Source: a virus. From it: a DNA stretch of 45,813 nucleotides. The position numbers and the translations under genes were made by a program. This document shows, one piece after another, positions 1 to 45,813 of the stretch (the first letter of the stretch is position 1; each line of letters starts with the position of its first letter). Under the pieces are notes generated by a model. It searched no databases and was not told where the DNA came from. It worked only from the letters and a program-made list of their open reading frames with translations. The stretch lies in IMG/VR virus record IMGVR_UViG_3300022562_000550, positions 1-45,813 of that record; one strand, written 5' to 3'.

Positions 1-55
1 GGACATCCTGAAGATGATCTGTAACATCGACCGCTTGCATCCGGCATCACGGTAG
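1..55 (+). CDS. 3' end of the small gene that starts at 45524 (duplicated by end overlap)
   Basis: The last 17 codons plus the TAG stop at 53-55 of the 66-aa protein encoded at 45524-45724 are repeated here because of the terminal overlap. This is not a separate gene. Confidence 0.85.
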   Translation, partial: DILKMICNIDRLHPASR

Positions 56-63
56 TCTACACT
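35..63 (+). promoter_or_regulatory. Candidate promoter of the recombination operon
   Basis: A -35-like TTGCAT (35-40) and a -10-like TACACT (58-63) are separated by 17 bp. The -10 lies inside the near-palindrome GTAGTCTAC, which recurs at the other rightward transcription starts. The -35 match is weak (3 of 6). The site sits in the gap between the small gene ending at 55 and the gene starting at 157. Confidence 0.5.
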
Positions 64-77
64 TTGAGTGTTGGGTT

Positions 78-126
78 GGGTCTCTGGTGTGTGAGGGCAT
101 TCGACCGCCTGCCGTGCCAGAGACCC
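78..126 (+). promoter_or_regulatory. Leader hairpin with perfect 10-bp stem
   Basis: GGGTCTCTGG (78-87) pairs perfectly with CCAGAGACCC (117-126) around a 29-nt loop that can fold further. It begins just after the expected transcription start and ends about 30 nt before the first gene. No T-run follows, so a leader or mRNA-stabilising structure is more likely than a terminator. Confidence 0.55.
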
Positions 127-156
127 GCCCGATGAGCACCGAAAGGAGAGCCAGTC

Positions 157-4250: not shown

Positions 4251-4499
4251 CACGACTATGCTCGCGCCGACCACCATGATCGACACTTTCGTTGTCGTTC
4301 TGTCTAGCATTCTCTGCATGAGATGGATGTCTACCTCGATGCGAGCGAGATGTCCGTTTATCGATGTGTGCGCCTGCTCGTTCACCTCAAGGTAACGCTC
4401 CATAGCACTGCACTTTTCCTTCAGCACCGCAATCTCCTGCTCTAGGGTGCGCACTCGCCGCTCCACATTATTGGTCTCCCCCATCGTCATCCCAGTCAC
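4212..4499 (-). CDS. Coiled-coil protein with C-terminal membrane anchor
   Basis: The protein has 95 aa and starts at GTG 4499, whose TGA overlap with the giant gene upstream (GTGA) and GGGAGG ribosome site support the start. Residues ~10-70 are a charged heptad-like coiled coil (VERRVRTLEQEIAVLKEKC). Residues ~73-92 form a membrane helix (VSIMVVGASIVVSSILMVV). The layout, coiled coil then a C-terminal transmembrane segment, resembles small phage lysis proteins of the hemolysin XhlA type, but I cannot assign it firmly. It is the last gene of the ~33-kb leftward operon and overlaps the convergent gene at 4250. Confidence 0.6.
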   Translation of the reverse strand: MTGMTMGETNNVERRVRTLEQEIAVLKEKCSAMERYLEVNEQAHTSINGHLARIEVDIHLMQRMLDRTTTKVSIMVVGASIVVSSILMVVHYATR

Positions 4500-7400
4500 C
4501 CCTCCCGTTCAGCCTCACGGACCTTTTCGCGCAGCTTCTTGATCTTCTTCTTGAAGAGAATCCCGCGTGCTGGCTGCGGCACATGTTCCAACATGAGCAA
4601 CTGAATGGGAGCTGGCGTCCCAAAGCGTACTGCGTCCTTCACTGCCATGACGCTGTCCCAAGCCTCGACGTAGACTGGACCAGCGACACGGCCCATCTCC
4701 GCTTCTCCATACCGCTCTGCCCAGAACTCGCTGTAGGCATCGAAGAACAGCGAGACGAGGCCGGACTGAGACGCAGCATCTCCGAGCTGGACCCACCACG
4801 GATCATCGTTGTCACGCCGCGTCAGAGCGTCACGTACACGGTTCAGACCGTACCCGAACCCAACGAGAGCCGCCAGCTTGGCGACCATCTTGGCCGTGTC
4901 TTTGTTCCACCCCATCTCACCCATACGCCTGAATTGAGTCAGGGTTTCCGCTGTCATCCTGAACGGGAACTGCTGCAAGCTGTAGAAGTGCTTCCCGACC
5001 GGATGCTGCACGAGGCCGGGCATGTCGATGATCTCGGTTCTGGCGTGGGCGCGCTCGCCAATGCGAGCCCCGGCGCGCCCTTCGAGGACGGCGTACTCGC
5101 CCTCGGTGAGCTTCTCCTTCGTTGCCATCTCGTAGAACCCGGGGTCGTCGAACAGCTCCTTCAGCAGGCGCTTCATCTGCGTCTCGATCTTTGGCTTGCC
5201 GTGCTCCCTTGCCGCTTCGAGCTGGCTGCGGTACGAGCGGAACGTGCTGGCTCCGGTGATGGCTCCATGCCTTCTGCCGATGCGGTCGAGATGGATCACG
5301 CCGTTGTTGTTCAGGAACGCGGTCCCCATCTTCGGCATGAACCCGCGCAGGTTGTTCGCCATGATGATCTGGAACTCGCTGTTCATGAGAACGCCAGTCT
5401 GCGCCAGGTGCAGATCGAGTAGACGCTGTGCCTCTGCGTCTGCCTTGCTCTCTGGCATCCCGGCGTCCATCAGCTCCTTCTTCTGGATCTTCTTGTACTC
5501 TGGCGCCCACCCCTTCAGCCACTGCACCAACTCGGTGTGCGCCCCAGTCTTCGCCCAGCTCGTGAGCTGAGAAACTCCAGCGGCTCCGAGGTATCGAATC
5601 GGAATGACCCCTCCGGCGATTGCATCCAGAAAGGCATTCGCCCTGGCCTTGTTGTACGGCTCGTGCGAGCCCGTGGCGATGTTGAAGAGGTCGCGGGCAT
5701 GCTCGGCCTTGTACCCTGCGTCTCGCATGGCGTTCAGCATTGCCGCAGCACGCTCGTAGTTTGGGCCGAAGACGCGAGCCATCTCGACGCGGCGCACACC
5801 GGAGAAGAAGTACTGCCGGAAGAGCCTGTTCAGGTCCCAGTCGCGCATGACGAGCACGTCGAGGAGGCGTGACTTCTCGATGTGCCCAGCTCTGGTAATC
5901 CGCATGTCAGGCTGGTCGTAAGCATGCAGCGGCATCTGGAAGTCGGACTGGAACCAGGCGTCACGGTAAGCAGACAGCACGTTGACCACGTCATCGTGAG
6001 TGATGAGTCTGCGCTTGCCAGGGTTCAGCTCGTCGGCAACCATCACGCCCTGCTTGACGGCGCTGTCGTAGATCAGCTCCGCTGCGCGCTTCGCGTTCTG
6101 CACGCGCTCGTAGTAGCGAGTGATCTTGTTCGGGTCTGCCTTGTTTCCGAGAAACTCCGGCACCTTCACGCCAGTGAGAGACTCGATGGTTTCGTAGACA
6201 GTGGACGGGATCGGGAGAAGCGCCTCCTCCCTGAACTTCACCGGGACGTAGCTGCCTCCTGGATTCAGGAACCCGGCGCCTTCGCGGATCTTCAGGGTGT
6301 TGACGTCGTTCCATAGAGCTGATGCCTGCATGTCGCGCAGGTCGATCATCCTCGGGACGTTCCCGTAGTGTGGCTCACCCTCCTTCACGAAGGCGAACTT
6401 CTCGCCCGTTACCATCTGGTTGATGGCTTCGGCGAAGTGCCTGGCGAAGTCACGATCAGTTCTGGAGATCGACTCCATCAATCGCTCGGAAGCAGGAGTC
6501 TTCGGGATGTCAGTGAAACCCCAGTGCTCTTCGAGCATGCGGCTCACCTCGTGGTACTCCCCCATCGAGAGTTCTTTCCACCACTTCTTGTCCCAGTTTG
6601 TCCATCCCGCGTTCTTCATCGCGTCTGCGATGTTGGCGAGGCGCACACGTATGTTCCACGTTGCATCCTGAATGCCCTGGTTCAGCCACTTGCCACCCGG
6701 GCCAACGGCGGAGAGCCCAGCTCCGACCGAAGTGGCCCACTTGCCCATGCCAGAGACACGCTCCGCTGCTCTTGCCTGCGCCTCGGTAGGGATGTCCATC
6801 GAGACCGATTCGAGCTTCTGCCTGTAGACATCGCCCTCGAACATCTTGCGCCGAATGAGCCAGCCTGGAGCTGTGATCTCGGCGCCGTTCTCGTCGACCC
6901 ACGTCGTCCTGAATGGCTCGATGCCGTTCTCTCCGTATGCGGTCTGCTTCTCCAGCTCGCCGAGGAGGCGCTCGGTCTCCCTCGGGCTCGGGCCCTTCCC
7001 CTTCTGCGATAGCTCGACTTCCTTCTTCCCGGCACGGCGGATGGCTGCATCACGAGCCTCACGGTTCATGTACTCGCGCACTACTTCCTCGGAGTAGGAG
7101 CGCTCTACAGGAGTCGGCACTACGCGTGCAGCGCCCTTCCTCTTCAAGCGCAGGAGCCAGATGGGCAGGCCAGCCAGGCCCATGCCCTTTGCCTTCTCCT
7201 CGTCGTCACCACCCCGGCTGGCCGCCCACAGCATCCCGGCTGACGTGAGCCCGATGGCGAGCACATTGTCCACTCCGAGGTCCGTGATGGCGCTCGGGAG
7301 TTTCCCCTTCATCTCCATGCTCTTGGACGCCACGCTGTCCCACAGGTCGATGAGCTGTTCGGCCTGGCGAATGGCCTGCTGGAACTTCGGCGGGAAGTGC

Positions 7401-10279
7401 GCGGCGTAGATGTCGAAGAAGCGCTCCGGCCCGGTCTTGGCGCGGATGACCTTGTAGCGCACCTTGGCGCCCTTCTTCTTGGCCACCTGCTCCTTGGCGA
7501 CGAACAGCATGCCGGGGTTCTCGTCGGTGAGGATCTGGGCCGCATGCGCAGCCGCGTCCGGGTTGCGGAAGAGCTTCTGCCTGATCCCCTTCGCGTCCGA
7601 GACCTTCCCACGGCCCCCGAGCTTCTCGAACTGGACCGAGCGCTGGGCCTTTTTCCCCAGTTCCGCCTCGGTTTTCCCCATTACCTCCTTGCCAAGAGCT
7701 TGCCGTGATTCACCTTGGCGCCACCTTGCATCTGTCCACAGCTTCCAGTAGACCTTCGACTTGACGTCTGGCACGGGCTCGCCACGGAAGAGCTTCTCGG
7801 AAACCGCCTTCGACAGCCTCGTGGCCTTGCCGGGCTCCAGGTGCTTTGCGGCGCGCACCTCCTTCACATGCCAGCCCTCTGGCCCCTCGACGAGGATGTA
7901 GTGGCCCTTGGGGTTCTTGAGCCTGAGTTCCTTCTGGGTCTTCCGCGCCTCGGCGAGCACCATCGTGGGCTCGCTCACCCGGCGCTCGACGAGCTGGACG
8001 AAGGGATCCTCGGGGAAGAACTCACCGGGGGGACGGCGGGATCTCCGCCCCTCTTTGAGGCGCTTGCCAGTCACAGGACCCAGCCCTGCCCCCCGGCGTT
8101 CCAGAACGGCCTCCTGAGCCGCTGTCAGCGGAATCTCACCTTCTGGGACCTGGGTGGCCTCGGGACGCCGTCTCTGGCCTCGCTGCGGCGTCTCAGGCAG
8201 CTTCCCTTCCTGGAACGTGGGCTCTCCCTCGGCGAACTGGCCGAGGCGGTGCCGGATGTACTCGTTCTCGAACTCGGTCTCCCGCCTCTGGGCAGCCTCA
8301 CGCAGGGCCTCCTGGTAGCGCTGCCTCCCGAAGACGCCCATGCGCTTCTGAGCCGCAGTCTTGCTCTCGGGGCGCCTCGGGTCCTGGCCCAATTCGTAGC
8401 GACCCTGCTCACGCTGCGCCTGGTACTCCTCCTTGGCCCTCTCCTGGTAGGCAAGCTCCGTCTCCTGCTTCTTCAGCTCCTGGAGCTGGGTCTCCATCTT
8501 CTTCGAGTCGAGGAGACCGTCCACTGCCGCCTCGAACCTCGGGTCCTCCTTCGCGGTGCGGAGAACCTCTTCGGTCTTCGGGACGAGGTCCTGCAGGAAG
8601 TCGAGCGTCTCCTTCGGCATCTCCTTGCGCAGGGCCTCGTAGGAGCGCAGCTCGGCGGGCGGGAGCAATCCCTCTTGGTAGGCGGTCTCGAATACGACCA
8701 GTGAGCGATGCTCGCCTCCGGGGAGCCCCCGCCCGATAGCTGTCTCTGCAGCAGGAAGCATGACGATGCTCTCTGCGAGCTGGATCTTCCCCTGCTTGAT
8801 CTTGTTCTCGGTGATGGTCTTGATGCGCTCTTTCGGGATGCCACGCTTGATGATCCCGGTGGCCGCTTCCGCTGACAGCCCGTAGTGGATCATGAGATCC
8901 TCGGCTGTGACGTCGATCTTCTCTCCACTGAGGCGCACTTGCGAGTTCTCGTAGAGCGCTTCCGCCTGGGCCCGGTAGACCTTCTCGGTCGTCTCCGGCT
9001 TCATCCCCTGGCGCTTACCCTGCCTGGCGAACGACTCGAACTCTGGTCCCATCTCCTTGACCACGGTGCCAGAGAGCTTGATCTGATGCCTCATGCCCTC
9101 GTTCGAGAACGAACGCGTCGGACCATTGAAGAGCGTCTGATGCATCCCCATCACAGAGAAGCCGAGCCCGGTGCCAAAGCCGCGAGCGAAGATCTCCTCG
9201 CGTTCCTTCTGCGTGAACCCACCCTCCCGCAGCTCGTAAGCCGCCATGCCGGATTCGAGGCCGCCGAACAGGTAGTTCGCAATGATGTTCTTGAGGGCAG
9301 GATTGTTCTGCAGAGGCTTGATCGCTTCAACCAGAGCATGAGAGGCAGCGCCAAAGGCAGTGAAGCCGAGCGCGAAGAGGGCAGACTTCTGGTAGTCCTG
9401 AGTCGAGAGGTTGTCTTCCTTCATCGTGCTGCCTGCTGCTGCGCGCATCGTGACAGTGTTCAGCAGCCCCAGAGACATCGAGGTCGCGCCAAACGACGAG
9501 AGCCCAGCAGCTCTCGCGCTTCCAGATGCAGCCAGCATGGCGCTGTGCACACGCTGCGGAAGCGCACCGGGGAATCCCCTCGCCAGAGTGGCAAACGCGA
9601 GCGCGTGGCCGAAGTACTCGGATGTACGGTCGAGTACGTTGGCCTCCATCAGAAGACCCCTGCGGTCCAGCTCCGACATAATGTCGACGTGTGGAAGGTG
9701 GGACGCCCACACGGCCTTCGGGGTGCCGCGCTGCATGATCCGTCGGCCCTGCTCGTCAACCGTGTAGATCGGGGTGGCGTCACGGTCCTCGATGTACGAC
9801 AGCTTCCCAGGATCGAATAGGCTCGCAGTACCAAGGATCGCATCCATGAACGTCTGTCCGTAGGCAGCAGACGCACGGGTCATCATCTGTTCTGGGTCGA
9901 ACGTCTCGATGGCACCCTTGATGGTGCCCTTCTCGGCAAGAGTCCGCTTGCGGCTGGCGCGCTTGAACTGGTTGAAGAGAGCACGCTGCTGCATCGGGTC
10001 CGATGGGTCGAGTTCTCCGGGCTCGAACCCGTAGGCTTCAAGTGGCTTGCTCTCCCCAGTCAGCTCCTTCCACTTCTGCTCGTCTACACTGAAGCGCGGC
10101 TTGCCGATGCGCCTTCTGCTCTTGGTGTCCCCGAACAGATCTGGCTGCACGTTGGCGTTGAAGCCAACGCCCGGCTGTTCAGCAGGTGGAGCCTCAAGCG
10201 GTTCATCAACGAACGTGATGGTGTATCTGCCGCTCGGCTTCTCTGCTGGCTGTTCATCGACGAAGCTGATCTTCGGCAC
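4496..10279 (-). CDS. Giant internal virion / ejected protein (1,927 aa)
   Basis: This is the largest gene, starting at GTG 10279 after CGAGGTAACA. The N-terminus carries two copies of a short motif, KISFVDE (~4-10) and TITFVDE (~20-26), which I associate with the large internal virion proteins of podoviruses. The mid-region (~590-720) is highly charged and helical (QELKKQETELAYQERAKEE), followed by a basic linker. A hydrophobic glycine-rich stretch lies near residue 1005-1025 (AIGLTSAGMLWAA). The C-terminal part includes HPVGKHFYSLQQFPFRM and a second hydrophobic segment, as in phage polyvalent ejection proteins. I see no clear lysozyme or protease motif. It follows two smaller internal-type proteins, consistent with an ejectosome that spans the cell envelope during DNA entry. 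Confidence 0.7.
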   Translation of the reverse strand: MPKISFVDEQPAEKPSGRYTITFVDEPLEAPPAEQPGVGFNANVQPDLFGDTKSRRRIGKPRFSVDEQKWKELTGESKPLEAYGFEPGELDPSDPMQQRALFNQFKRASRKRTLAEKGTIKGAIETFDPEQMMTRASAAYGQTFMDAILGTASLFDPGKLSYIEDRDATPIYTVDEQGRRIMQRGTPKAVWASHLPHVDIMSELDRRGLLMEANVLDRTSEYFGHALAFATLARGFPGALPQRVHSAMLAASGSARAAGLSSFGATSMSLGLLNTVTMRAAAGSTMKEDNLSTQDYQKSALFALGFTAFGAASHALVEAIKPLQNNPALKNIIANYLFGGLESGMAAYELREGGFTQKEREEIFARGFGTGLGFSVMGMHQTLFNGPTRSFSNEGMRHQIKLSGTVVKEMGPEFESFARQGKRQGMKPETTEKVYRAQAEALYENSQVRLSGEKIDVTAEDLMIHYGLSAEAATGIIKRGIPKERIKTITENKIKQGKIQLAESIVMLPAAETAIGRGLPGGEHRSLVVFETAYQEGLLPPAELRSYEALRKEMPKETLDFLQDLVPKTEEVLRTAKEDPRFEAAVDGLLDSKKMETQLQELKKQETELAYQERAKEEYQAQREQGRYELGQDPRRPESKTAAQKRMGVFGRQRYQEALREAAQRRETEFENEYIRHRLGQFAEGEPTFQEGKLPETPQRGQRRRPEATQVPEGEIPLTAAQEAVLERRGAGLGPVTGKRLKEGRRSRRPPGEFFPEDPFVQLVERRVSEPTMVLAEARKTQKELRLKNPKGHYILVEGPEGWHVKEVRAAKHLEPGKATRLSKAVSEKLFRGEPVPDVKSKVYWKLWTDARWRQGESRQALGKEVMGKTEAELGKKAQRSVQFEKLGGRGKVSDAKGIRQKLFRNPDAAAHAAQILTDENPGMLFVAKEQVAKKKGAKVRYKVIRAKTGPERFFDIYAAHFPPKFQQAIRQAEQLIDLWDSVASKSMEMKGKLPSAITDLGVDNVLAIGLTSAGMLWAASRGGDDEEKAKGMGLAGLPIWLLRLKRKGAARVVPTPVERSYSEEVVREYMNREARDAAIRRAGKKEVELSQKGKGPSPRETERLLGELEKQTAYGENGIEPFRTTWVDENGAEITAPGWLIRRKMFEGDVYRQKLESVSMDIPTEAQARAAERVSGMGKWATSVGAGLSAVGPGGKWLNQGIQDATWNIRVRLANIADAMKNAGWTNWDKKWWKELSMGEYHEVSRMLEEHWGFTDIPKTPASERLMESISRTDRDFARHFAEAINQMVTGEKFAFVKEGEPHYGNVPRMIDLRDMQASALWNDVNTLKIREGAGFLNPGGSYVPVKFREEALLPIPSTVYETIESLTGVKVPEFLGNKADPNKITRYYERVQNAKRAAELIYDSAVKQGVMVADELNPGKRRLITHDDVVNVLSAYRDAWFQSDFQMPLHAYDQPDMRITRAGHIEKSRLLDVLVMRDWDLNRLFRQYFFSGVRRVEMARVFGPNYERAAAMLNAMRDAGYKAEHARDLFNIATGSHEPYNKARANAFLDAIAGGVIPIRYLGAAGVSQLTSWAKTGAHTELVQWLKGWAPEYKKIQKKELMDAGMPESKADAEAQRLLDLHLAQTGVLMNSEFQIIMANNLRGFMPKMGTAFLNNNGVIHLDRIGRRHGAITGASTFRSYRSQLEAAREHGKPKIETQMKRLLKELFDDPGFYEMATKEKLTEGEYAVLEGRAGARIGERAHARTEIIDMPGLVQHPVGKHFYSLQQFPFRMTAETLTQFRRMGEMGWNKDTAKMVAKLAALVGFGYGLNRVRDALTRRDNDDPWWVQLGDAASQSGLVSLFFDAYSEFWAERYGEAEMGRVAGPVYVEAWDSVMAVKDAVRFGTPAPIQLLMLEHVPQPARGILFKKKIKKLREKVREAEREG

Positions 10280-25736: not shown

Positions 25737-26849
25737 TTAGGCCGTGACGACGTTGTGGTGGAGACCCAGCTTCCGGCGCTGCTTGCAGATGTGCTGCGCA
25801 CGGAGAAGGATCTTCGACCAGATTGCGTCCTGGTCGTAAGGCTCCACGAACGGAGTCGTGACGAAGTTGACGCGAGACGAAACGACCAGCTCCAGCCAGC
25901 GCGTGTTCAGGAACAGAGCGCACGCCTCGGCGGCGACTGCGTTCAGGTCCACCGAATCGGTGGCCGTCGCGCCGAAGCCTGGCATGAACTCGCTCCAGAA
26001 CATGAGAGCGCCCTTGAACTTGACGGTCTCGAAGCCAGCCGAAGCGGCGGCCTCGTCACCGTAGTTCCCGTAGCGCTGCTGCGGCTGCAGGCCCGCCTCG
26101 TAGAACTCGAAGTAGTCCTGCGAGGCGAGGATGAGATCGACCGCATCGTTGGTCGAGCCCTTGGAGCAGTTGTTGTAGAGATTCGCCATCTCCAAGAACA
26201 TCTCGGCGAAGGTGTGCGTGGCACCAGCGGGGGCACCCAGCTTCACCTGGTTCCTCCACCACGTCTCGGTGTTCTGATTGATCGCGTGGATCCCGTCCAG
26301 GTTGGAGAACTCCTTCTGGATCAGGTAACCGAGAGGGTTGAAGTCCTTGCCGTTGTTCCCGGGCTGATGACGCCTGGTGGGCTGTGCGCCCGTGGTGCCG
26401 ACGATGCCCTGAATGAGCAGCCTTTCCAGCTCCTCCTTCATGGACAGCTCGGCGATGTCCACCTTGTCTCGGAGCAGATCGCGCTTGGCGAACTCGCCCT
26501 GGTTCTCGTCCATCTCCTGGCCCGAGATGCCAACGGTCGTCGCCATGTTCTTCATGTCGTCGTAACCGCTGGTCTGCTCGTCGGTCGCGTTGACCGTGAG
26601 GTTCTCGAACTTGGAGTAGGTCTTGGTGTTGGTGTTCTTGGCCCAGATCACTGGGACGCGAACCTTGGCGCCACCCGTGTAGGGGCGGATACCCCGACCC
26701 ATGCCACGGTCCCGACCCCGACCACGGTTCTTCATGTACCAGATGTAGCCGATCCCGGCGTGCACCTGGTCCACGAGTTCCCCGCGCATTTCGTCCATCG
26801 TGGTCGAGAAGAGCGACGTCCAAACTCTGGTTTCGGATACCGAAGCCAT
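25737..26849 (-). CDS. Major capsid protein
   Basis: The protein has 370 aa, and the ATG follows GAGGGAGTGACAA. Features typical of HK97-fold coat proteins are a helical N-terminal arm, a strand-rich E-loop region with VRVPVIWAKNT, a spine-helix region (EMFLEMANLYNNCSK), and the late motif LILASQDYFEFYEAGLQPQQ, then GFETVKFKGALMFW. The latter matches the P-domain/A-domain junction of a common phage capsid family. It follows the scaffold gene and precedes decoration genes. Cleavage cannot be judged; no protease gene is seen, so a separate scaffold is expected to leave without cleavage. Confidence 0.85.
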   Translation of the reverse strand: MASVSETRVWTSLFSTTMDEMRGELVDQVHAGIGYIWYMKNRGRGRDRGMGRGIRPYTGGAKVRVPVIWAKNTNTKTYSKFENLTVNATDEQTSGYDDMKNMATTVGISGQEMDENQGEFAKRDLLRDKVDIAELSMKEELERLLIQGIVGTTGAQPTRRHQPGNNGKDFNPLGYLIQKEFSNLDGIHAINQNTETWWRNQVKLGAPAGATHTFAEMFLEMANLYNNCSKGSTNDAVDLILASQDYFEFYEAGLQPQQRYGNYGDEAAASAGFETVKFKGALMFWSEFMPGFGATATDSVDLNAVAAEACALFLNTRWLELVVSSRVNFVTTPFVEPYDQDAIWSKILLRAQHICKQRRKLGLHHNVVTA

Positions 26850-28126: not shown

Positions 28127-28465
28127 TCAGTAGTATTTGCGGCCTGCCTGCCGCCTGCGGGCCCGAACATCCGCACTAGGTTCACGGACATACAGACCCT
28201 GCTCTTTCATGATTCTACGATGATGTTGGGGGCTTTCGACAAGTACTGGTTCTGAACCGAGGTTCTCGTCGAGGAGCGGGTAGCGCCCCTTCGCCACGGA
28301 ATCGCCGTCGATTCCGGCTGATTCGAGCCGGAAGTCCCTGCGCATCTTAGAGTTACAGATAGAGCACTCGGGCACCAGCTCACCGCTCTCCATCTTGGCG
28401 ACAGAGCAGATGATGGTCCTACGGCTTTCCTTGTGCTCGTCGCACTTGTAGCAGTAGGTCGGCAT
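28127..28465 (-). CDS. Zinc-ribbon protein (FmdB-like N-terminus)
   Basis: The protein has 112 aa from ATG 28465, overlapping the portal stop (TGATG). Residues 1-45 hold MPTYCYKCDEH, then CSVAK, then CSICNSKMRRDF, the order of FmdB-type zinc ribbons. The rest is polar, with SPQHHRRIMKEQGLYV and a basic end (RARRRQAGRKYY). This ribbon type is frequent beside phage portal genes; the role is unknown. Confidence 0.7.
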   Translation of the reverse strand: MPTYCYKCDEHKESRRTIICSVAKMESGELVPECSICNSKMRRDFRLESAGIDGDSVAKGRYPLLDENLGSEPVLVESPQHHRRIMKEQGLYVREPSADVRARRRQAGRKYY

Positions 28466-30564
28466 CACTTGCCCCCGTTGTTGCTCGGGACGCGCTCGAC
28501 GGCTCGGTCACGCAGGCTGCGCCCGATTGCACGGCCCTCGGTGGTGCGTCCCTGCTCTGGACCTTGCCCGGTTGCCTTTGGACCGCCGCCTCGATCTGGA
28601 GCTGCCTGGGCTTTCGCGTCTGCCTGGCTCTGGACCGCAGACTCTTGCTCCTGCCCCTGCTGCATCATCATCTGGGCGATCTGAGTGAACTCCTGAGCCA
28701 TCTGCGGGTCGTGGCGTCTCCACGCCGTGAAGAACATCTTCACGAAGCTCGGGGACGAGAAGGCGAACTGGGGCCCCAGCACCTGGAGCAGGGTCGTGAG
28801 GTCCTGCCGTTCGGTGCGGTCGTCGTGTGGCTCCAGCTCGCCGAGTTCGATGTAGGTCTCGAAGTGGCCCTGGATCTGGACGCTGGAGAGCTGCACCGAG
28901 GAGAAGACCTTCCCGTCTGGCCCCTCGACCTGAACGGCCATGGGGATGTCGAGGTTCTCCTGGAGGCAGGCCAGCATCATGTCGGCGTGGTGCTTGAGCC
29001 CGGCGGAAACCTGGGCGCGCTTGTCGTTGTCGCGGGCAGTGCCACGGGATTCGACGATGGCGGCCTGGGTTGCCGTGCCCGAGCCCGCGATGTTCCGCGC
29101 CTCCGGGGCCGAGCCCATGATCTCGGAGAAGTCCGAGATGTAGCTCGCCAGGTTGGCGTAGATCGCCGGATCGAGCGGGGCGTCCTTCAGCGGGGCCACC
29201 TGGCTCGGGTCGCCACGCTCCAGCTCGATGAAGATGCCGTCGGTGTTGTCCTTCAGCTTCTCCCTCTCCCTGGCCGAGAGCACGCCCTTCCGCCCGAGGT
29301 ACTTCCTGCCGTAGCGCCCCATGTGGGTGAGCAGCATGGACTGGCCCTCGTTGTAGGCTTGCGCCAGCGGGCGAGCGGACGTCACGTCGGGGATCGGGTA
29401 GAACTCGCCGATGACCTCGTGGAACTTCATGTACGAGAACGACGAGTGGTCGATGTACTTCGGGTACTTCACGATGGCTGCTGGCTTGGTGAATCCATCG
29501 ACGATGTAGCTGATCTCGCGCTTGATCGGATCGAAGCACTTGTAGCCCCAGATCCGCATGAGGTCACGGTCGTTCATGGTTGGGTCGAAGCCCTGCGCCT
29601 CGGTTGGCGCGTCGGTGAGAGCTGACTTCTGGCTGGCCTTGAGACGAGACCTGGCCTTACGCGACAGCCCTTCCTGGTCGATGAACTTCGCCGCGTCAGA
29701 GATCTCGCGCTTGTGCTCGAACAGCTCGGAGTCCATGAACTCGTTGTACGTCCAGCTCATGCGCTTCGCCACCCAGGAGTGGTCATACGGGTTGTTCCCG
29801 CCTTCTGGGTCCTGGCGCATGTCCGTGTAGTGAACGAACTGGCTACGGAAGTAGTCGGCTGGGTTCCTGGTATCGACGACGAACTTGTTCCCGCCGCGCC
29901 GGATCGGGCGCCCGCGCTCGTCGAGCTTCGGGGTTCCGCCGACGAAGTCCATGAAGATTCCCTCTGGCGTATGCTGAATGATCAGCTCGCCGATCTCCTC
30001 GTCCTTGTTTCGCTCCGGGTCGAGGCCCTCGTCCGGCGTGTAGGTGACCTCCATGACTCCGTATGCCAGCTCTGATGCGAGCAGGCAGAGCCGCGCCTGG
30101 CGCAGGAAGTCGTTCTTCGGGTTCATCATCACGTAGTTGAGCACCGACTCCGCCGCCATGCGCGCAGTCTCCCCTGCCGGGCCGAGGGGTCTGCGGGCAC
30201 GCAGGTAGAAGTGCGGGATCTTCCACATGATGTTCGCGTTGGTCGCGGCGAGAGCGGCCAGCACGCGATTGACGATGAGCACCTTGCCCTCACGCATGAA
30301 GGCTTCGAGTTCTTCGAGCCGCAGGTTCTCGGGGATCCCTGGGCTGCCAAGCTGTTGCCCGACATAGAACTCTTCGTTGCGCTTGAACTCCTCCCAGAAC
30401 GGGGTCGCGTGTGCCTCCGAAAGGCGAACGCGGTTCTCCCAGAGCTTCACGACGTTACTGCGCCGGGTGCCCTTCTTCCTGTCTGCTAGAACGGCGTTGA
30501 GCAATCCTGATTTGGCTGCCGATCTGGGCGGTGTGGATGTCGCCTTCTTCCGGCGGGCTGGCAT
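28465..30564 (-). CDS. Portal protein
   Basis: The protein has 699 aa. The ATG has an almost ideal ribosome site (AAGGAGGTGA, 8-9 nt before). Features include an N-terminal helix with WENRVRLSEAHATPFWEEF, NEEFYVGQQLG, VLIVNRVLAALAATNANIMW, a mid-region with AYNEGQSMLLTHMGRYGRKY, and GSAPEARNIAGSGTATQAAI before a long stem helix, as in podovirus-type portals. The last ~60 residues are Gln- and Gly-rich, perhaps a flexible tail into the capsid. The start lies 110 nt inside the upstream small gene, a long overlap. It forms the dodecameric DNA gate for the terminase. Confidence 0.85.
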   Translation of the reverse strand: MPARRKKATSTPPRSAAKSGLLNAVLADRKKGTRRSNVVKLWENRVRLSEAHATPFWEEFKRNEEFYVGQQLGSPGIPENLRLEELEAFMREGKVLIVNRVLAALAATNANIMWKIPHFYLRARRPLGPAGETARMAAESVLNYVMMNPKNDFLRQARLCLLASELAYGVMEVTYTPDEGLDPERNKDEEIGELIIQHTPEGIFMDFVGGTPKLDERGRPIRRGGNKFVVDTRNPADYFRSQFVHYTDMRQDPEGGNNPYDHSWVAKRMSWTYNEFMDSELFEHKREISDAAKFIDQEGLSRKARSRLKASQKSALTDAPTEAQGFDPTMNDRDLMRIWGYKCFDPIKREISYIVDGFTKPAAIVKYPKYIDHSSFSYMKFHEVIGEFYPIPDVTSARPLAQAYNEGQSMLLTHMGRYGRKYLGRKGVLSAREREKLKDNTDGIFIELERGDPSQVAPLKDAPLDPAIYANLASYISDFSEIMGSAPEARNIAGSGTATQAAIVESRGTARDNDKRAQVSAGLKHHADMMLACLQENLDIPMAVQVEGPDGKVFSSVQLSSVQIQGHFETYIELGELEPHDDRTERQDLTTLLQVLGPQFAFSSPSFVKMFFTAWRRHDPQMAQEFTQIAQMMMQQGQEQESAVQSQADAKAQAAPDRGGGPKATGQGPEQGRTTEGRAIGRSLRDRAVERVPSNNGGK

Positions 30565-30811
30565 TGGCCCTCACCTCCTTCCAGAAATCCTCGATGAGAA
30601 CATCGACTCTCTTCTTGAACTCAGCTTGGAACTGCCTGCGTTCCTGCTCGTGCAGGAACTTGAAGCGTTCGTACTGCGAGACACACGTCTTGCACAGGTC
30701 CAGAACTTTTGCGTGGCTGTCGAGAAACGGGACCCGGGACGCGTCTTCATTGTTTGTTAGATCGGTCACTTTGCCCGCTTCCCAACAGCCATCACAAAAA
30801 ATGCGTCTCAT
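30455..30811 (-). CDS. Zinc-finger protein overlapping the portal start
   Basis: The protein has 118 aa. The ATG overlaps the upstream TGA (ATGA). It starts with FCDGCWEAGK, and a second CKTC pair follows ~30 residues later, a four-cysteine site. A long charged helix follows (RFKFLHEQERRQFQAEFKKR). The last ~37 codons overlap the portal gene in another frame and read as a shadow, so the useful part may end near residue 85. The function is unknown. Confidence 0.6.
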   Translation of the reverse strand: MRRIFCDGCWEAGKVTDLTNNEDASRVPFLDSHAKVLDLCKTCVSQYERFKFLHEQERRQFQAEFKKRVDVLIEDFWKEVRANASPPEEGDIHTAQIGSQIRIAQRRSSRQEEGHPAQ

Positions 30812-31059
30812 GCTGGCTCAATCACCTTCGGGCTAAGTACCCTCCCGCAGTTGACGCAGTAGAGCTGCATCGGTACGAGAGGTCCCTCGATCTCTTCTTT
30901 CACGCTCGGGTCGCAGCCGCACTGGTAGATTGCATACGGCTTCCGGTTCTTGCGACGCTCTTCCTCGATGGCGAGGCGGTTCTTCTGCCACCACTTCTCG
31001 CCTACCCGAGAACGCGTCCGTGGGCTCTCGCCGCTTCGTTTAGTTGTTCCTCGTGCCAT
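30808..31059 (-). CDS. Zinc-ribbon protein after the terminase nuclease gene
   Basis: The protein has 83 aa from ATG 31059 (a GTG two codons earlier is possible). The start overlaps the nuclease ORF by 58 nt. A basic N-terminus (MARGTTKRSG) is followed by WWQKNRLAIEEERRKNRKPY, then a ribbon with QCGCDPS and YCVNCGRV. It could bind DNA near the packaging motor. No family is recognised. Confidence 0.6.
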   Translation of the reverse strand: MARGTTKRSGESPRTRSRVGEKWWQKNRLAIEEERRKNRKPYAIYQCGCDPSVKEEIEGPLVPMQLYCVNCGRVLSPKVIEPA

Positions 31060-31934
31060 CCCCACGTTCCTGGTCTGTAGTCGATGACGCCAGGTTCATC
31101 GAGTCCCTGTGACAGCAGGAAGTACTTGTCGCTGTCGAACGGGTCGACGTAGCGCCGGATGATCCCTTCGCGCAGTTCGACCTGTGTGTTGGGGCTCGGG
31201 TCTCTCCAGGCGAGGCGTCTGTAGCAGCGAATCGTCTGCTTGCACCTGGAAGAGATTCTGTACTTTGGGCGCTCTTTGTTGTTCCAGAGGTTGCCCTTGA
31301 GCAGGTTGATGAACGCCAGGTCCACCCCTGGCTCGTTGCGTCCACGGTCGACGTGGACCCCTTCTTCGGCGAGCAGGTCTCCGATCGACACCAGCTCGCT
31401 GCCTTTGTGCTGTGAGCGATTCCAGATGGAAGGATCACCGATGATGCCGCGAAGGAGCGGGAAGTACGGCTTGCGTTTCAGCAGCCTCGCCTGCTCGGCG
31501 GCAGGAGTATGGCTTTCGACGATCTCGTCGATCTTCACGATGTCGTCCAGGCTGAAGACAGCGTAGATGCCCCATGAGCATGGAAAGTGAATCCCGTAGT
31601 CGTATGAGGCATAGAGCGGAATGTTGTCGTCGACATCAGGGGGGTCGATGATGACGTTGACACTCAGCTCATCGAAGTCGGCGAAGACGCGTTGGCCTGT
31701 CATCGCGCCGAAGTCGATCTCCATCTCCTGCCGCCACTTCGGTCCAGTGGGCCCACCGGGCCAAGCAGTGGAGAAGTGCTTGTACCACTTCCTCCCCTGC
31801 TCGGTCTCGGTGTTCTTGTCGGGGTCGGCGGAGTAGTGGATCGACATGACTGGTGCTCCAGCCGTCGTCTTGTACTCCTCGATCCCCCTCATTGGACCGT
31901 GAAGGTGGCTTCCTTCTGGCTTCGGGTCTTTCAC
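31002..31934 (-). CDS. terL (C-terminal part): Terminase large subunit, nuclease domain ORF
   Basis: The protein has 310 aa from GTG 31934, which overlaps the holin-like stop as GTGA; ATG 31892 is a later option. It begins with MSIHYSADPDKN (~30-41) and KWRQEMEIDFGAMTGQRVF, the linker and entry region of terminase C-terminal domains. The RNase H-like nuclease follows. Likely metal-binding acids are D112 in ASYDYGIHFPCSW and D167 in GIIGDPSIWNR, with a third near the VDPFDSDKYF stretch. No ATPase motif is present; that domain is the separate ORF at 32212-33090. Together the two make one normal-length terminase (~600 aa), cut at the domain linker by the membrane-protein gene at 31931. Confidence 0.8.
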   Translation of the reverse strand: MKDPKPEGSHLHGPMRGIEEYKTTAGAPVMSIHYSADPDKNTETEQGRKWYKHFSTAWPGGPTGPKWRQEMEIDFGAMTGQRVFADFDELSVNVIIDPPDVDDNIPLYASYDYGIHFPCSWGIYAVFSLDDIVKIDEIVESHTPAAEQARLLKRKPYFPLLRGIIGDPSIWNRSQHKGSELVSIGDLLAEEGVHVDRGRNEPGVDLAFINLLKGNLWNNKERPKYRISSRCKQTIRCYRRLAWRDPSPNTQVELREGIIRRYVDPFDSDKYFLLSQGLDEPGVIDYRPGTWGWHEEQLNEAARAHGRVLG

Positions 31935-32200
31935 CGCTTCCGTTTCTGGGTCTTCATGAGGCCCTCGAAGAGAGTGTTCTTGGCTGTCGAGTAGATTCCG
32001 ACCGCCGCCAGCGTGTCTGTCGCTCCTGCTGAGAGTGCGTCCGGCAGCGCAATCCCTAGCTGGGTTGCGAGCTGGTAGAAGACAGCAGCAGTGAAGATGA
32101 CGATTGGGATTGCCTTTGTCGAGAACGAAGGCCAGAACATCGGCACGACATGCTTCAGGATGAGTCCGAAGATGACGGCGAGAATGGTGGTGATGTCCAC
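31931..32200 (-). CDS. Holin-like membrane protein inserted in the terminase locus
   Basis: The protein has 89 aa from GTG 32200, with AAAGGAGAC in front, 11 nt after the ATPase stop. The stop overlaps the nuclease start (GTGA). Two or three hydrophobic segments (~4-22 ITTILAVIFGLILKHVV; ~32-50 IPIVIFTAAVFYQLATQLG; ~57-70 weaker) and a basic end (KTQKRKR) match small phage holins. ATDTLAAVGIYSTAKNT resembles the C-terminal half of such holins as I remember them. With the M15 peptidase two genes upstream it would make a lysis pair. The holin function is inferred. Confidence 0.65.
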   Translation of the reverse strand: MDITTILAVIFGLILKHVVPMFWPSFSTKAIPIVIFTAAVFYQLATQLGIALPDALSAGATDTLAAVGIYSTAKNTLFEGLMKTQKRKR

Positions 32201-32211
32201 GATGTCTCCTT

Positions 32212-33090
32212 TCAGACGGCGAGTTCGTAAACGTCGCCTTGCTCAACGAGCTTCCCGAAGTACGTGTCAGGCGCAGCCGAGGAAATGAAGATGCCGCGCC
32301 CTCCGCCCTTGATCATCGGGAGCGCCGCCATGTACGACGCCTCGAACTCGGGCTGGAAGCAGCACTCGTCTCCGATGACAAGCGTTGCCGTGTAGCTTCG
32401 GAACATGTCCGGCCCCTGTGGGATACCCCAGATGGTGCCGCCTTCGGGGTAGATCAGTTCTCCCCGAAGCCCCTTGAGCCCGTTGGCTCTCATGAAGGGT
32501 GGCATGGCGCGCTCGATGAAGGCGCACCGTGCGTGATACCAAGAGTTCTTGTAGACCAGGTTCCAGGCGTCTTCGGCCTTCTTGGTCTGGATCATCGTTC
32601 TGGCGTTGTCGGAGAACCTGGTCTGGTGGGTTGCGTAGGCGCAGGCGAGCCATGTGAGCATGAGCTGCCGCGACTTGATGATGTAGCCGATCCCGCCCTC
32701 GTCGAGGGAGTGGAAGAAGTCCAAGGCTTTGAAGAGGTAGCGTTTACGTGGGAACGGCTTTCTGCGTGCGCTCGAATCGTGCTCGTCGATGGTGCGGACG
32801 AATCCTCCGAAGACGTAGTACTCGGGGTCATCGGCGGCCCGCTTCAGGACCTTGGCGATCTTGTCCTCTGACGGGTTGGCCCCGAGCCCGAGTTCGCGCC
32901 GGAGCGCTCGGTCGAGGTCTGGGAGGAGTGCCGGGAGATCCGGCTTGAGGGTATGTTCGCCGCCCCACCGCACAGGCACCACATCCAGGCGGAGTGGGAG
33001 TTGGCTCGGCTCACCCACATCCAACTGTTGGATGGTGCCTTGAGCGCCCCCCGGCGAGCCGAGGAGAGGGAGTCGGCCCCCTCCATTCAC
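32212..33090 (-). CDS. terL (N-terminal part): Terminase large subunit, ATPase domain ORF
   Basis: The protein has up to 292 aa. The first possible start is GTG 33090 with a weak site, so the true start may be a little later. Packaging ATPase motifs are clear: a Walker A-like KSRQLMLTW (139-147), typical of terminases without the classic GK(S/T); Walker B TLVIGDE (236-242) with catalytic E242; and coupling motif ISSAAP (269-274). The protein ends 18 residues later, just where the nuclease domain should begin. The nuclease is encoded separately 270 bp downstream. It is upstream of portal and capsid genes, as usual. Confidence 0.8.
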   Translation of the reverse strand: MNGGGRLPLLGSPGGAQGTIQQLDVGEPSQLPLRLDVVPVRWGGEHTLKPDLPALLPDLDRALRRELGLGANPSEDKIAKVLKRAADDPEYYVFGGFVRTIDEHDSSARRKPFPRKRYLFKALDFFHSLDEGGIGYIIKSRQLMLTWLACAYATHQTRFSDNARTMIQTKKAEDAWNLVYKNSWYHARCAFIERAMPPFMRANGLKGLRGELIYPEGGTIWGIPQGPDMFRSYTATLVIGDECCFQPEFEASYMAALPMIKGGGRGIFISSAAPDTYFGKLVEQGDVYELAV

Positions 33091-33213
33091 TCCGCTGGGG
33101 AGAAGCCTGGGGTCGTTCGGTGGGATCTGTCAAGTAGCGGGCCCGGAGAGGGGGGTCCTTCAGCTCCAGCAAGCGGAAGGCGCAATGGCTCCCCGGGCCC
33201 ACCGTCGATGCTA

Positions 33214-33528
33214 TCAGCTCTTCGGGTCCCACTCGAAGTGAATGTGTGGGCCGCCCTTGGTGTTCTTGGACTCGTCGATCACGTCCCACTCTTCTCCGAG
33301 CGCTTCGCGGCATTCCTCGACGATCTGCAGGACGGCAGCCGCAGGCACTCCGGCGTCGAAGGCGCACCCGGTGAAGTGCTTGGACCCTCGCATGTGCTTG
33401 CCCTCGGTGATCGAGGTGATTCGCAGCTCGCCCCCGTTGTACTTCAGGTAGATGCCCTCGACGATCTGTGCTCCGAGCGATACTTGCGGGCTCATGCCCT
33501 TCATGCTCACGCCTGGCTTGAGTCTCAA
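33214..33528 (-). CDS. M15-family peptidoglycan peptidase (endolysin candidate)
   Basis: The protein has 104 aa from TTG 33528, which overlaps the upstream TGA (TTGA) after AGAGAGGAAGCG; ATG 33504 would give 96 aa. It contains the full M15 zinc-site motif SxHxxGxAxD as SKHFTGCAFD (H51, D58) and a second site GPHIHFEW (H95 or H97). GKHMRGS just before the first motif is also typical. Such enzymes cut peptide cross-links in peptidoglycan as L,D- or D,D-peptidases. It has no signal peptide, so it would need the holin-like protein at 31931 to reach the wall. Confidence 0.8.
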   Translation of the reverse strand: MRLKPGVSMKGMSPQVSLGAQIVEGIYLKYNGGELRITSITEGKHMRGSKHFTGCAFDAGVPAAAVLQIVEECREALGEEWDVIDESKNTKGGPHIHFEWDPKS

Positions 33529-33725
33529 CGCTTCCTCTCTTTCTTCGCGTGTTGGATGTACACTGCGACGCACTGGAACACGTAGCACTCCAGATGCATT
33601 GCCTCACCCGGCTGGATGATCATCGACTCTGAAACGGTGTCGTCATCCGGGCGCCAGACTTGGGCTCCACGGATCGAGTCGTTGCAGCTCGCGCACTGGC
33701 GAAGATCCCCGCCCCTCACGTCCAT
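33525..33725 (-). CDS. Small zinc-finger protein
   Basis: The protein has 66 aa. The ATG overlaps the TGA of the HTH gene (TGATG). QCASCNDSI (CxxC) and MHLECYVFQC (HxxC) give a possible metal site split by ~30 residues. A basic end (HAKKERKR) carries the ribosome site for the next gene. The function is unknown. Confidence 0.6.
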   Translation of the reverse strand: MDVRGGDLRQCASCNDSIRGAQVWRPDDDTVSESMIIQPGEAMHLECYVFQCVAVYIQHAKKERKR

Positions 33726-34090
33726 CAGTCGTCATCCTCTCGGAAGCGTCGATGGGACTCTCCATCGAACTTCGGCGGCTTCCATGACTTCGGAAGCACC
33801 TTGATCAGATCACCCCCAAAGTCTTCCAGAGAGGCACGCCAGTTGTCGAGGTCCTCGAAGAGGATCTTCTCGCGGATGTTGTAGAGCTTCGACAGTCTCT
33901 CGCGCATGGCCGGATACGGCGCCAGTCGGCCAAGCTCGGCGTCCTTGACCGCTTGCGGGGAGACATCCGCCAGCTCCCCAGCACGCTGGATGGAGAGCTG
34001 GCAGAGAATCCTTGCCTGTCGGATCCGTGTCATGAACACCGACTGGCGTGGAGCAGACTTGTCGAGCCTGCTTCTTTGGAACTTAGGCAT
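33725..34090 (-). CDS. Helix-turn-helix (XRE-like) protein; regulator or small terminase
   Basis: The protein has 121 aa from ATG 34090, overlapping the upstream TAA by 8 nt. Residues ~20-75 form an XRE-like HTH: RIRQARILCQLSIQRAGELA, then DVSPQAVKDAELGRLAPYPA, then a closing helix with LSKLYN. The end is charged and unstructured. It may be a repressor of the late operon. It could also be the small terminase, which has an HTH and usually lies just upstream of the ATPase, here three genes away. No other small terminase candidate is evident. Confidence 0.65.
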   Translation of the reverse strand: MPKFQRSRLDKSAPRQSVFMTRIRQARILCQLSIQRAGELADVSPQAVKDAELGRLAPYPAMRERLSKLYNIREKILFEDLDNWRASLEDFGGDLIKVLPKSWKPPKFDGESHRRFREDDD

Positions 34091-45527: not shown

Positions 45528-45724
45528 GCAAGCGCACCATCCATCGAGCCACCTACCGGGGCAGGCCAGTCATCCTGGTGCTCCGGTCTGGAGAGAGGAT
45601 CCGGGCACGGTTCATCGAGCGCCGGAACGACCGTGTAATCCTAAGCAACGGAAGGCGTTACAAGATCAAGGACATCCTGAAGATGATCTGTAACATCGAC
45701 CGCTTGCATCCGGCATCACGGTAG
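45524..45724 (+). CDS. Small SH3-like basic protein after the helicase
   Basis: The protein has 66 aa from GTG 45524, overlapping the helicase TGA (GTGA) with AAGGAGGAGAA before it. Strands such as RPVILVLRSGERIRARFIER and VILSNGRRYKIKDILKM suggest a small SH3- or Sm-like barrel, as in short phage proteins of the type 'G....ARF..R....V.L..G.R.R..DI'. Its last 55 bases lie in the terminal repeat. Likely a nucleic-acid-binding partner of the helicase. Confidence 0.65.
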   Translation: MSKRTIHRATYRGRPVILVLRSGERIRARFIERRNDRVILSNGRRYKIKDILKMICNIDRLHPASR

Positions 45725-45813
45725 TCTACACTTTGAGTGTTGGGTTGGGTCTCTGGTGTGTGAGGGCATTCGACCGCCTGCCGTGCCAGAGACCCGCCCG
45801 ATGAGCACCGAAA
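45670..45813. repeat. Right copy of 144-bp terminal direct repeat
   Basis: Exact copy of bases 1-144, offset 45669. Removing one copy gives a circle of 45,669 bp in which the helicase operon at the right end reads straight into the recombination genes at the left end. Confidence 0.97.
45704..45732 (+). promoter_or_regulatory. Right-end copy of the promoter at 35-63
   Basis: Same TTGCAT-17-TACACT sequence, duplicated because of the terminal overlap. In the circle it is one site between the helicase unit and the recombination genes. Confidence 0.45.

What the first reader, a model, noticed from the sequence alone, without database searches (positions are those of the whole stretch)
31002..33090. 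Terminase large subunit split into ATPase and nuclease genes by a holin-like gene
The ATPase motifs (KSRQLMLTW, TLVIGDE, ISSAAP) end in one ORF at 32212, and the RNase H-like nuclease domain begins in another at 31934. The cut falls at the natural domain linker. Between them is an 89-aa membrane protein with its own ribosome site (AAAGGAGAC) and GTGA coupling to the nuclease. All three starts and stops are tidy, so this is not a simple sequencing error. TerL is normally one chain; here two chains would have to assemble on the portal, and lysis and packaging genes are translated as one unit.
Basis: partly seen in the sequence, partly recalled or inferred. Interest (0 to 1): 0.85.

Follow-up and report, generated by a model that had tools for sequence, protein, structure and literature searches.

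The report
Two-gene split phage packaging motor
The DNA-packaging motor of this uncultured tailed phage is encoded as two separate proteins, an ATPase and a nuclease, instead of the usual single chain; dozens of related environmental viruses share the same split, so it is a real, inherited variant of a motor whose laboratory-split T4 counterpart cannot move DNA.

Summary
Window 32212-33090 (-) encodes a terminase-type ATPase core (AlphaFold model vs T4 gp17: Z 24.5). Window 31002-31934 (-) encodes the TerL nuclease (vs phage D6E: Z 20.3). An 89-aa membrane protein with a weak holin match lies between them. The genome looks complete (exact 144-bp terminal repeat) and holds no second copy of either part. 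The split is not an error, intron or holin insertion. Among 65 distinct relatives, 55 have the two ORFs apart, 2 are fused, and 8 lack a nuclease ORF in the fragment held. The genes between differ, and one whole clade has the nuclease gene before the ATPase gene. Both chains are under strong purifying selection. The cut is not at the ATPase/nuclease linker. It falls inside the canonical ATPase domain, at the ASCE/lid boundary (gp17 ~314), so part of the lid sits on the nuclease chain. The ATPase is T4-like, while the nuclease and portal are like those of D6E/SPP1/P22/Jasmine-type phages. Two-gene TerL is already reported in Arthrobacter cluster AY phages, with a different breakpoint. This is therefore a large, apparently undescribed clade: a new variant of a known kind. 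Co-assembly is inferred.

The parts
32212..33090 (-). TerL chain 1: ATPase core (ASCE subdomain plus N-terminal lid segment); P-loop region KSRQLMLTW (deviant Walker A), Walker B TLVIGDE, motif III ISSAAP
   Evidence: PHROG terminase phrog_2 E 4e-6; family profile to T4 gp17, best E 5e-13; AF2 pLDDT 82, Z 24.5 to gp17, model 25-292 = gp17 44-314
31931..32200 (-). 89-aa hydrophobic ORF, weak holin match; own ribosome site AAAGGAG; occupies the gap between the two TerL genes
   Evidence: phrog_1129 holin E 0.0012, 19.8 bits; positional counterpart in L004 (8265-8600) also matches phrog_1129 (E 0.0024) and weakly Phage_holin_5_2
31002..31934 (-). TerL chain 2: rest of lid subdomain plus linker (residues ~15-79) and RNase H-like nuclease (residues 80-279; D112, D167, D267 conserved)
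   Evidence: AF2 pLDDT 87, Z 20.3 to D6E TerL residues 234-416; family profile to SPP1, D6E and P22 nucleases; D112 and D167 invariant, D267 nearly invariant in A5
33214..33588 (-). M15-peptidase-like ORF (SKHFTGCAFD ... HIHF), probable endolysin, upstream of chain 1
   Evidence: motif by eye; no Pfam or PHROG hit itself; the L004 ORF in the same place hits Peptidase_M15_3 (5.6e-6) and phrog_894 endolysin (3.9e-14)
28465..30564 (-). P22-like portal protein, downstream of the nuclease gene; the nuclease-portal order is conserved in the ATPase-first clade
   Evidence: phrog_156 E 1e-5, PF16510 E 0.0038 below cut-off; portal profile in 42 loci, downstream of the nuclease wherever the nuclease is held
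25737..26849 (-). major capsid protein
   Evidence: phrog_9953 E 5.7e-25; weak tblastn matches to Mx8/Mx9 and podovirus capsid proteins
1..144 (.). left copy of an exact 144-bp direct terminal repeat (other copy 45670-45813): contig closes or has terminal repeats, so the genome is probably complete

Best explanation
This is a bipartite large terminase of a tailed phage. Chain 1 carries the ATP-hydrolysing ASCE core. Chain 2 carries the remaining lid segment, the linker and the RNase H nuclease. Shown: each chain is by profile and fold the corresponding part of TerL, the pair is conserved and under purifying selection in a large clade, and no other TerL exists in the window. Inferred: the two chains bind each other through the ASCE/lid interface, which is intramolecular in ordinary TerL, and form one ring motor on the portal that pumps and cuts DNA. 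Cutting before the lid rather than after it leaves the lid joined covalently to the nuclease, so the lid-hinge-nuclease lever stays in one piece and only a tight subdomain interface has to re-form. This may be why it works in nature while T4 gp17 split at the linker loses translocation. The holin-like gene is a later occupant of the gap, coupled to the nuclease by a GTGA overlap.
For: Fold and profile identity of both halves. Conserved active-site letters: ATPase K139, R141, D241, E242 invariant in 65 sequences; nuclease D112, D167 invariant and D267 nearly invariant in 54. Separate ORFs in 55 of 65 distinct relatives with several different spacers, in both gene orders. The nuclease-first loci form one supported clade in both trees (98/91 and 96), so the two genes have been inherited together. 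dN/dS is about 0.02-0.13 for both chains in nearly all pairs tested. Only one copy of each half in a genome with terminal repeats. Cut at gp17 314 / D6E ~198, before the D6E lid-nuclease linker 230-241. T4 gp17 split at the linker keeps ATPase and nuclease but loses translocation (PMC3012670).
Against: No complex could be modelled and there are no peptides, virions or transcripts, so co-assembly, stoichiometry and packaging activity are untested. Relatives were found by similarity to split ATPases, so the share that is split is biased upward. Two relatives are fused (L057, L091), so covalent joining is also viable. The P-loop lacks GK[ST], so ATPase activity itself is an inference from the conserved lysine and Walker B.
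Confidence: 0.82

Rival explanations
1. A single TerL protein is still made, by RNA splicing of an intron or by a programmed frameshift, and the split is only in the DNA.
For: TerL genes broken by group I introns are spliced in Jug phages (PMC12363816) and terminases are trans-spliced in mirusviruses (PMC12768974). In the window the nuclease frame happens to be open back past the ATPase stop (stop-to-stop 32312-31005), and some relatives have adjacent or overlapping halves (gaps 15-57 nt).
Against: No Rfam match in 30000-34000. Each half has its own start and, for the spacer ORF, a ribosome site. In relatives the halves are up to 2.4 kb apart with intact genes and stops between, or in reverse order, which rules out cis-splicing or frameshift there. 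A frameshift in the window would put ~100 out-of-frame residues into the motor.
Confidence: 0.06
2. Assembly or sequencing artefact (frameshift or chimeric insertion).
For: Metagenomic contig; the L101 MAG shows a broken ATPase ORF of this kind.
Against: The same split is found in dozens of independent contigs, intact reading frames are kept by selection, and nearly identical contigs from separate assemblies agree (e.g. L004 and L005).
Confidence: 0.01
3. The nuclease chain is not part of the motor but a separate cleavage enzyme, and the ATPase chain alone is the translocase, in the style of phi29 gp16 or of terminases whose nuclease acts apart.
For: The two genes are separable and change order; the ATPase and nuclease halves have different nearest kin among single-chain TerLs; the D6E ATPase domain alone hydrolyses ATP about 60-fold faster (PMC5727402).
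Against: Chain 2 starts with the rest of the lid (residues ~15-79), which is needed only to complete the ATPase domain, and the fused relatives L057 and L091 join the same two parts with a short linker.
Confidence: 0.11

Closest known systems
Two-gene TerL of Arthrobacter cluster AY phages (BillyTP PP978841 genes 2 and 3; BlueShadow)
   Same: ATPase and nuclease encoded by two consecutive genes next to portal (PMC11920828, PMC12820723)
   Different: AY chains are ~359 and ~198 aa, the genes overlap with nothing between, and the nuclease chain begins directly at the RNase H strand, so by reading of the sequence the cut is at the hinge after the lid. Neither half matches the profiles made here. 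Separate origin and breakpoint.
T4 gp17 (single-chain TerL)
   Same: Closest solved fold and profile for the ATPase chain (Z 24.5; family profile E 5e-13)
   Different: One chain; P-loop SRQLGKTT against KSRQLMLTW here; its nuclease is not the nearest to chain 2 (Z 15.2 against 20.3 for D6E); gp17 cut at the linker loses translocation.
TerL of D6E, SPP1, P22 and Jasmine/DS1-like phages (single-chain)
   Same: Closest solved folds or profile matches for the nuclease chain; Jasmine/DS1 portals belong to the same profile
   Different: One chain; the ATPase parts of DS1, Jasmine, Wollypog and HTVC104P carry a P-loop with GK and do not match the ATPase profile made here.
Mirusvirus and alloherpesvirus terminases; Jug-phage terL
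   Same: ATPase and nuclease parts encoded apart or in fragments
   Different: There the parts are rejoined at RNA level by trans- or self-splicing; no intron signal here and no evidence of rejoining.

Membership tests
Large terminase (TerL) of Caudoviricetes | ASCE ATPase of terminase type with Walker B acidic pair and coupling motif | tested here: met
   Z 24.5 to gp17, D241 and E242 invariant, ISSAAP/TTAAAG motif
Large terminase (TerL) of Caudoviricetes | Walker A with GK[ST] or an accepted deviant form | tested here: inconclusive
   K-S-R-[QH]-x-x-x-[ST]-W replaces GK[ST]; K139 invariant. Deviant Walker A motifs in TerLs are reported (title of ref 49 in PMC5727402); this exact form was not compared.
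Large terminase (TerL) of Caudoviricetes | RNase H-like nuclease domain with three conserved acidic residues | tested here: met
   Z 20.3 to D6E; D112 and D167 invariant, D267 nearly so
Large terminase (TerL) of Caudoviricetes | ATPase and nuclease in one polypeptide | tested here: not met
   Two ORFs in the window and in 54 of the other 64 relatives; exceptions L057 and L091
Large terminase (TerL) of Caudoviricetes | packaging module context (portal, capsid) | tested here: met
   portal and capsid genes downstream
Cluster AY-type two-gene TerL | same breakpoint and homologous halves | tested here: not met
   AY halves do not match the ATPase or nuclease profile; chain lengths 359/198 against 292/310
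Intron-split or trans-spliced terminase | intron or splice signal joining the halves | tested here: not met
   no Rfam match in 30000-34000; reverse gene order in one clade excludes cis-splicing there. Trans-splicing was not tested at RNA level.
Holin (89-aa ORF) | match to a holin family and membrane-lytic function | tested here: inconclusive
   phrog_1129 E 0.0012 only; function not testable here

The most novel reading that the evidence does not exclude
A large environmental phage clade runs a genuinely two-chain packaging motor, built from a T4-gp17-like ATPase with a lysine-first, GK-less P-loop and a D6E/SPP1/P22-like lid-nuclease that travels with the portal. The lid is shared between chains, so the ATPase ring and the nuclease/lever can be loaded, exchanged or regulated separately during packaging.
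Probability: 0.3. Interest if true: 0.85.

Novelty: new variant of a known kind. Interest (0 to 1): 0.6.

Why it matters
TerL is used as a single-chain hallmark gene for finding and classifying phages. In this clade a reader or pipeline sees two short proteins with no Pfam match for the nuclease and matches in only 3 of 65 ATPases, so packaging genes and whole virus groups can be missed. Mechanistically, T4 gp17 cut at its linker loses DNA translocation, yet these viruses keep a two-chain motor cut one subdomain earlier. That gives a simple test of where the force path runs: keep the lid with the nuclease and see whether the motor works.

Tried and rejected
Group I/II intron: no Rfam hit at E<=1 in 30000-34000. 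Frameshift or assembly error: rejected by conservation, gene-order reversal and selection. A complete terL elsewhere: none. Homing endonuclease as the cause of the split: an HNH_3 endonuclease sits in the gap of L032, but its close sister L028 has a gap of only 254 nt between the matched regions, so it looks like a later insertion there; the original cause is unknown. Cultured phages with the same split: tblastn with ATPase and nuclease queries found only distant matches (all under 60% identity), and every annotated one opened was single-chain TerL; many listed records were not opened. Bacterial genomes: the A1 scan found nothing, the A4 scan found L100 (split, in a Betaproteobacteria MAG) and L101 (broken ORF). 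Ten paper searches found the AY precedent but nothing on this clade; subscription papers are not in the library. Trees contain very long branches (L092, L003, L093, L091), so whether fusion or fission is ancestral is not decided.

Full report
OBSERVATION. On the minus strand, three ORFs follow each other: a 292-aa ATPase ORF (33090-32212), an 89-aa hydrophobic ORF (32200-31931) with AAAGGAG before its GTG, and a 310-aa ORF (31934-31002) whose GTG overlaps the TGA of the 89-aa ORF. The coordinates and motifs in the finding are correct. The ATPase start is uncertain (first 52 residues disordered in the model), and the nuclease could also start at an internal ATG 14 codons downstream.

IDENTITY OF THE HALVES. 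Single-sequence searches are weak: no Pfam hit for either half, and phrog_2 terminase at E 4e-6 for the ATPase. Family profiles built from relatives are clear. The ATPase profile matches T4 gp17 (E 5e-13 to 8e-11). The nuclease profile matches the SPP1, D6E and P22 TerL nucleases (3e-6 to 2e-4). AlphaFold models (pLDDT 82 and 87) match gp17 at Z 24.5 (model 25-292 to gp17 44-314) and D6E TerL at Z 20.3 (model 80-278 to 234-416). K139, R141, D241 and E242 are invariant in 65 ATPases. In 54 nucleases D112 and D167 are invariant and D267 nearly so.

WHERE THE CUT IS. In D6E the ATPase domain is ASCE core plus lid, then a linker at 230-241, then the nuclease (PMC5727402). Chain 1 maps to D6E up to residue 198 and to gp17 up to 314; the nuclease fold of chain 2 begins at D6E 234. 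So chain-2 residues ~15-79 hold the remaining lid segment and the linker. The fused relative L057 shows the same parts joined by a short stretch.

CONSERVATION. A profile scan of IMG/VR gave 139 ATPase relatives, of which the best 80 were kept; nuclease scans added more. Among 65 distinct ATPases, two are fused to a nuclease (L057, L091), 34 (window included) lie before a separate nuclease ORF, 21 lie after it, and 8 show no nuclease ORF in the fragment held; near-identical contigs of three of those 8 (L022, L040, L070) do hold an upstream nuclease. The stop-to-stop ATPase ORFs end within 18 residues of the conserved core in all but the two fused cases. The window belongs to a 7-member clade with support 100/99. 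The nuclease-first loci are one clade in both the ATPase tree (98/91) and the nuclease tree (96). Spacers in the window's clade include membrane ORFs (window, L004, L010, L012), a ~240-260 aa protein, and a ~175 aa protein. dN/dS is 0.02-0.13 for both chains in nearly all pairs with usable dS; one very close pair (L048/L051) gave 0.31 on few changes. The scan was seeded with split ATPases, so these counts are not a survey of all TerLs.

COMPLETENESS. The window starts and ends with the same exact 144 bp, so the genome is probably complete. Six-frame profile searches find one ATPase and one nuclease. In the ATPase-first clade the portal follows the nuclease, often within a few bases.

MIXED KINSHIP. 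The ATPase profile matches four T4-like single-chain TerLs (E 4e-21 to 2e-29), while the nuclease profile does not reach E 10 in any of them. Conversely, five TerLs of another kind (DS1, Jasmine, Wollypog, HTVC104P, ctEqG8) match the nuclease profile (E 7e-16 to 1.5e-26) and not the ATPase profile. PDB profile and fold rankings agree, and Jasmine, DS1 and ctEqG8 portals match the window's portal profile. This suggests different sources for the two chains, but uneven evolutionary rates could give the same picture; it is a lead.

P-LOOP. Members read K-S-R-[QH]-x-x-x-[ST]-W where gp17 has SRQLGKTT. Deviant Walker A motifs in TerLs are known in the literature; this one was not tested for function.

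MECHANISM. Splitting gp17 at its linker keeps ATPase and nuclease activities but abolishes DNA translocation (PMC3012670); in that model the lid (NsubII) is the transmission between engine and wheel. Here the natural cut leaves the lid joined to the nuclease. The best explanation is that the two chains re-form the ASCE/lid interface and act as one motor. Binding and activity were not tested, and no tool here models a complex.

COMPARISON. Two-gene TerL is already reported for Arthrobacter cluster AY phages (PMC11920828, PMC12820723). In BillyTP the chains are 359 and 198 aa, consecutive, and the nuclease starts at the RNase H strand, so the breakpoint differs and neither half matches the profiles made here. 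Intron-split terL (Jug phages) and trans-spliced terminases (mirusviruses) are rejoined at RNA level. The present clade is thus a new variant of a known kind, probably not described before as far as the open-access library shows.

VERDICT. Real, conserved and old. The holin-like gene is incidental; the interesting points are the breakpoint, the gene-order reversal and the mixed kinship.

Noticed in passing
1-144 and 45670-45813: Exact 144-bp direct terminal repeat; either true terminal redundancy or an assembly overlap of a circular contig.
   Followed up: partly
32212-33090: Walker A of the whole ATPase family lacks GK[ST]: K-S-R-[QH]-x-x-x-[ST]-W in the aligned sequences.
   Followed up: partly
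33214-33588: M15-peptidase-like probable endolysin just upstream of the ATPase gene, so in the window lysis-like genes sit on both sides of the ATPase gene.
   Followed up: partly
31002-32312: The nuclease frame stays open through the 89-aa gene and past the ATPase stop; probably a by-product of high G+C, as relatives have stops there.
   Followed up: partly
L032:7687-8169: HNH homing endonuclease (HNH_3 E 9e-15) between the ATPase and nuclease genes; not seen in the small gap of its close sister L028.
   Followed up: partly
4496-10279: Single 1927-aa ORF without any PHROG match, in the structural region; perhaps an ejected internal virion protein.
   Followed up: no
L101:863-1627: ATPase of this family interrupted by a stop in a bacterial genome bin.
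   Followed up: no
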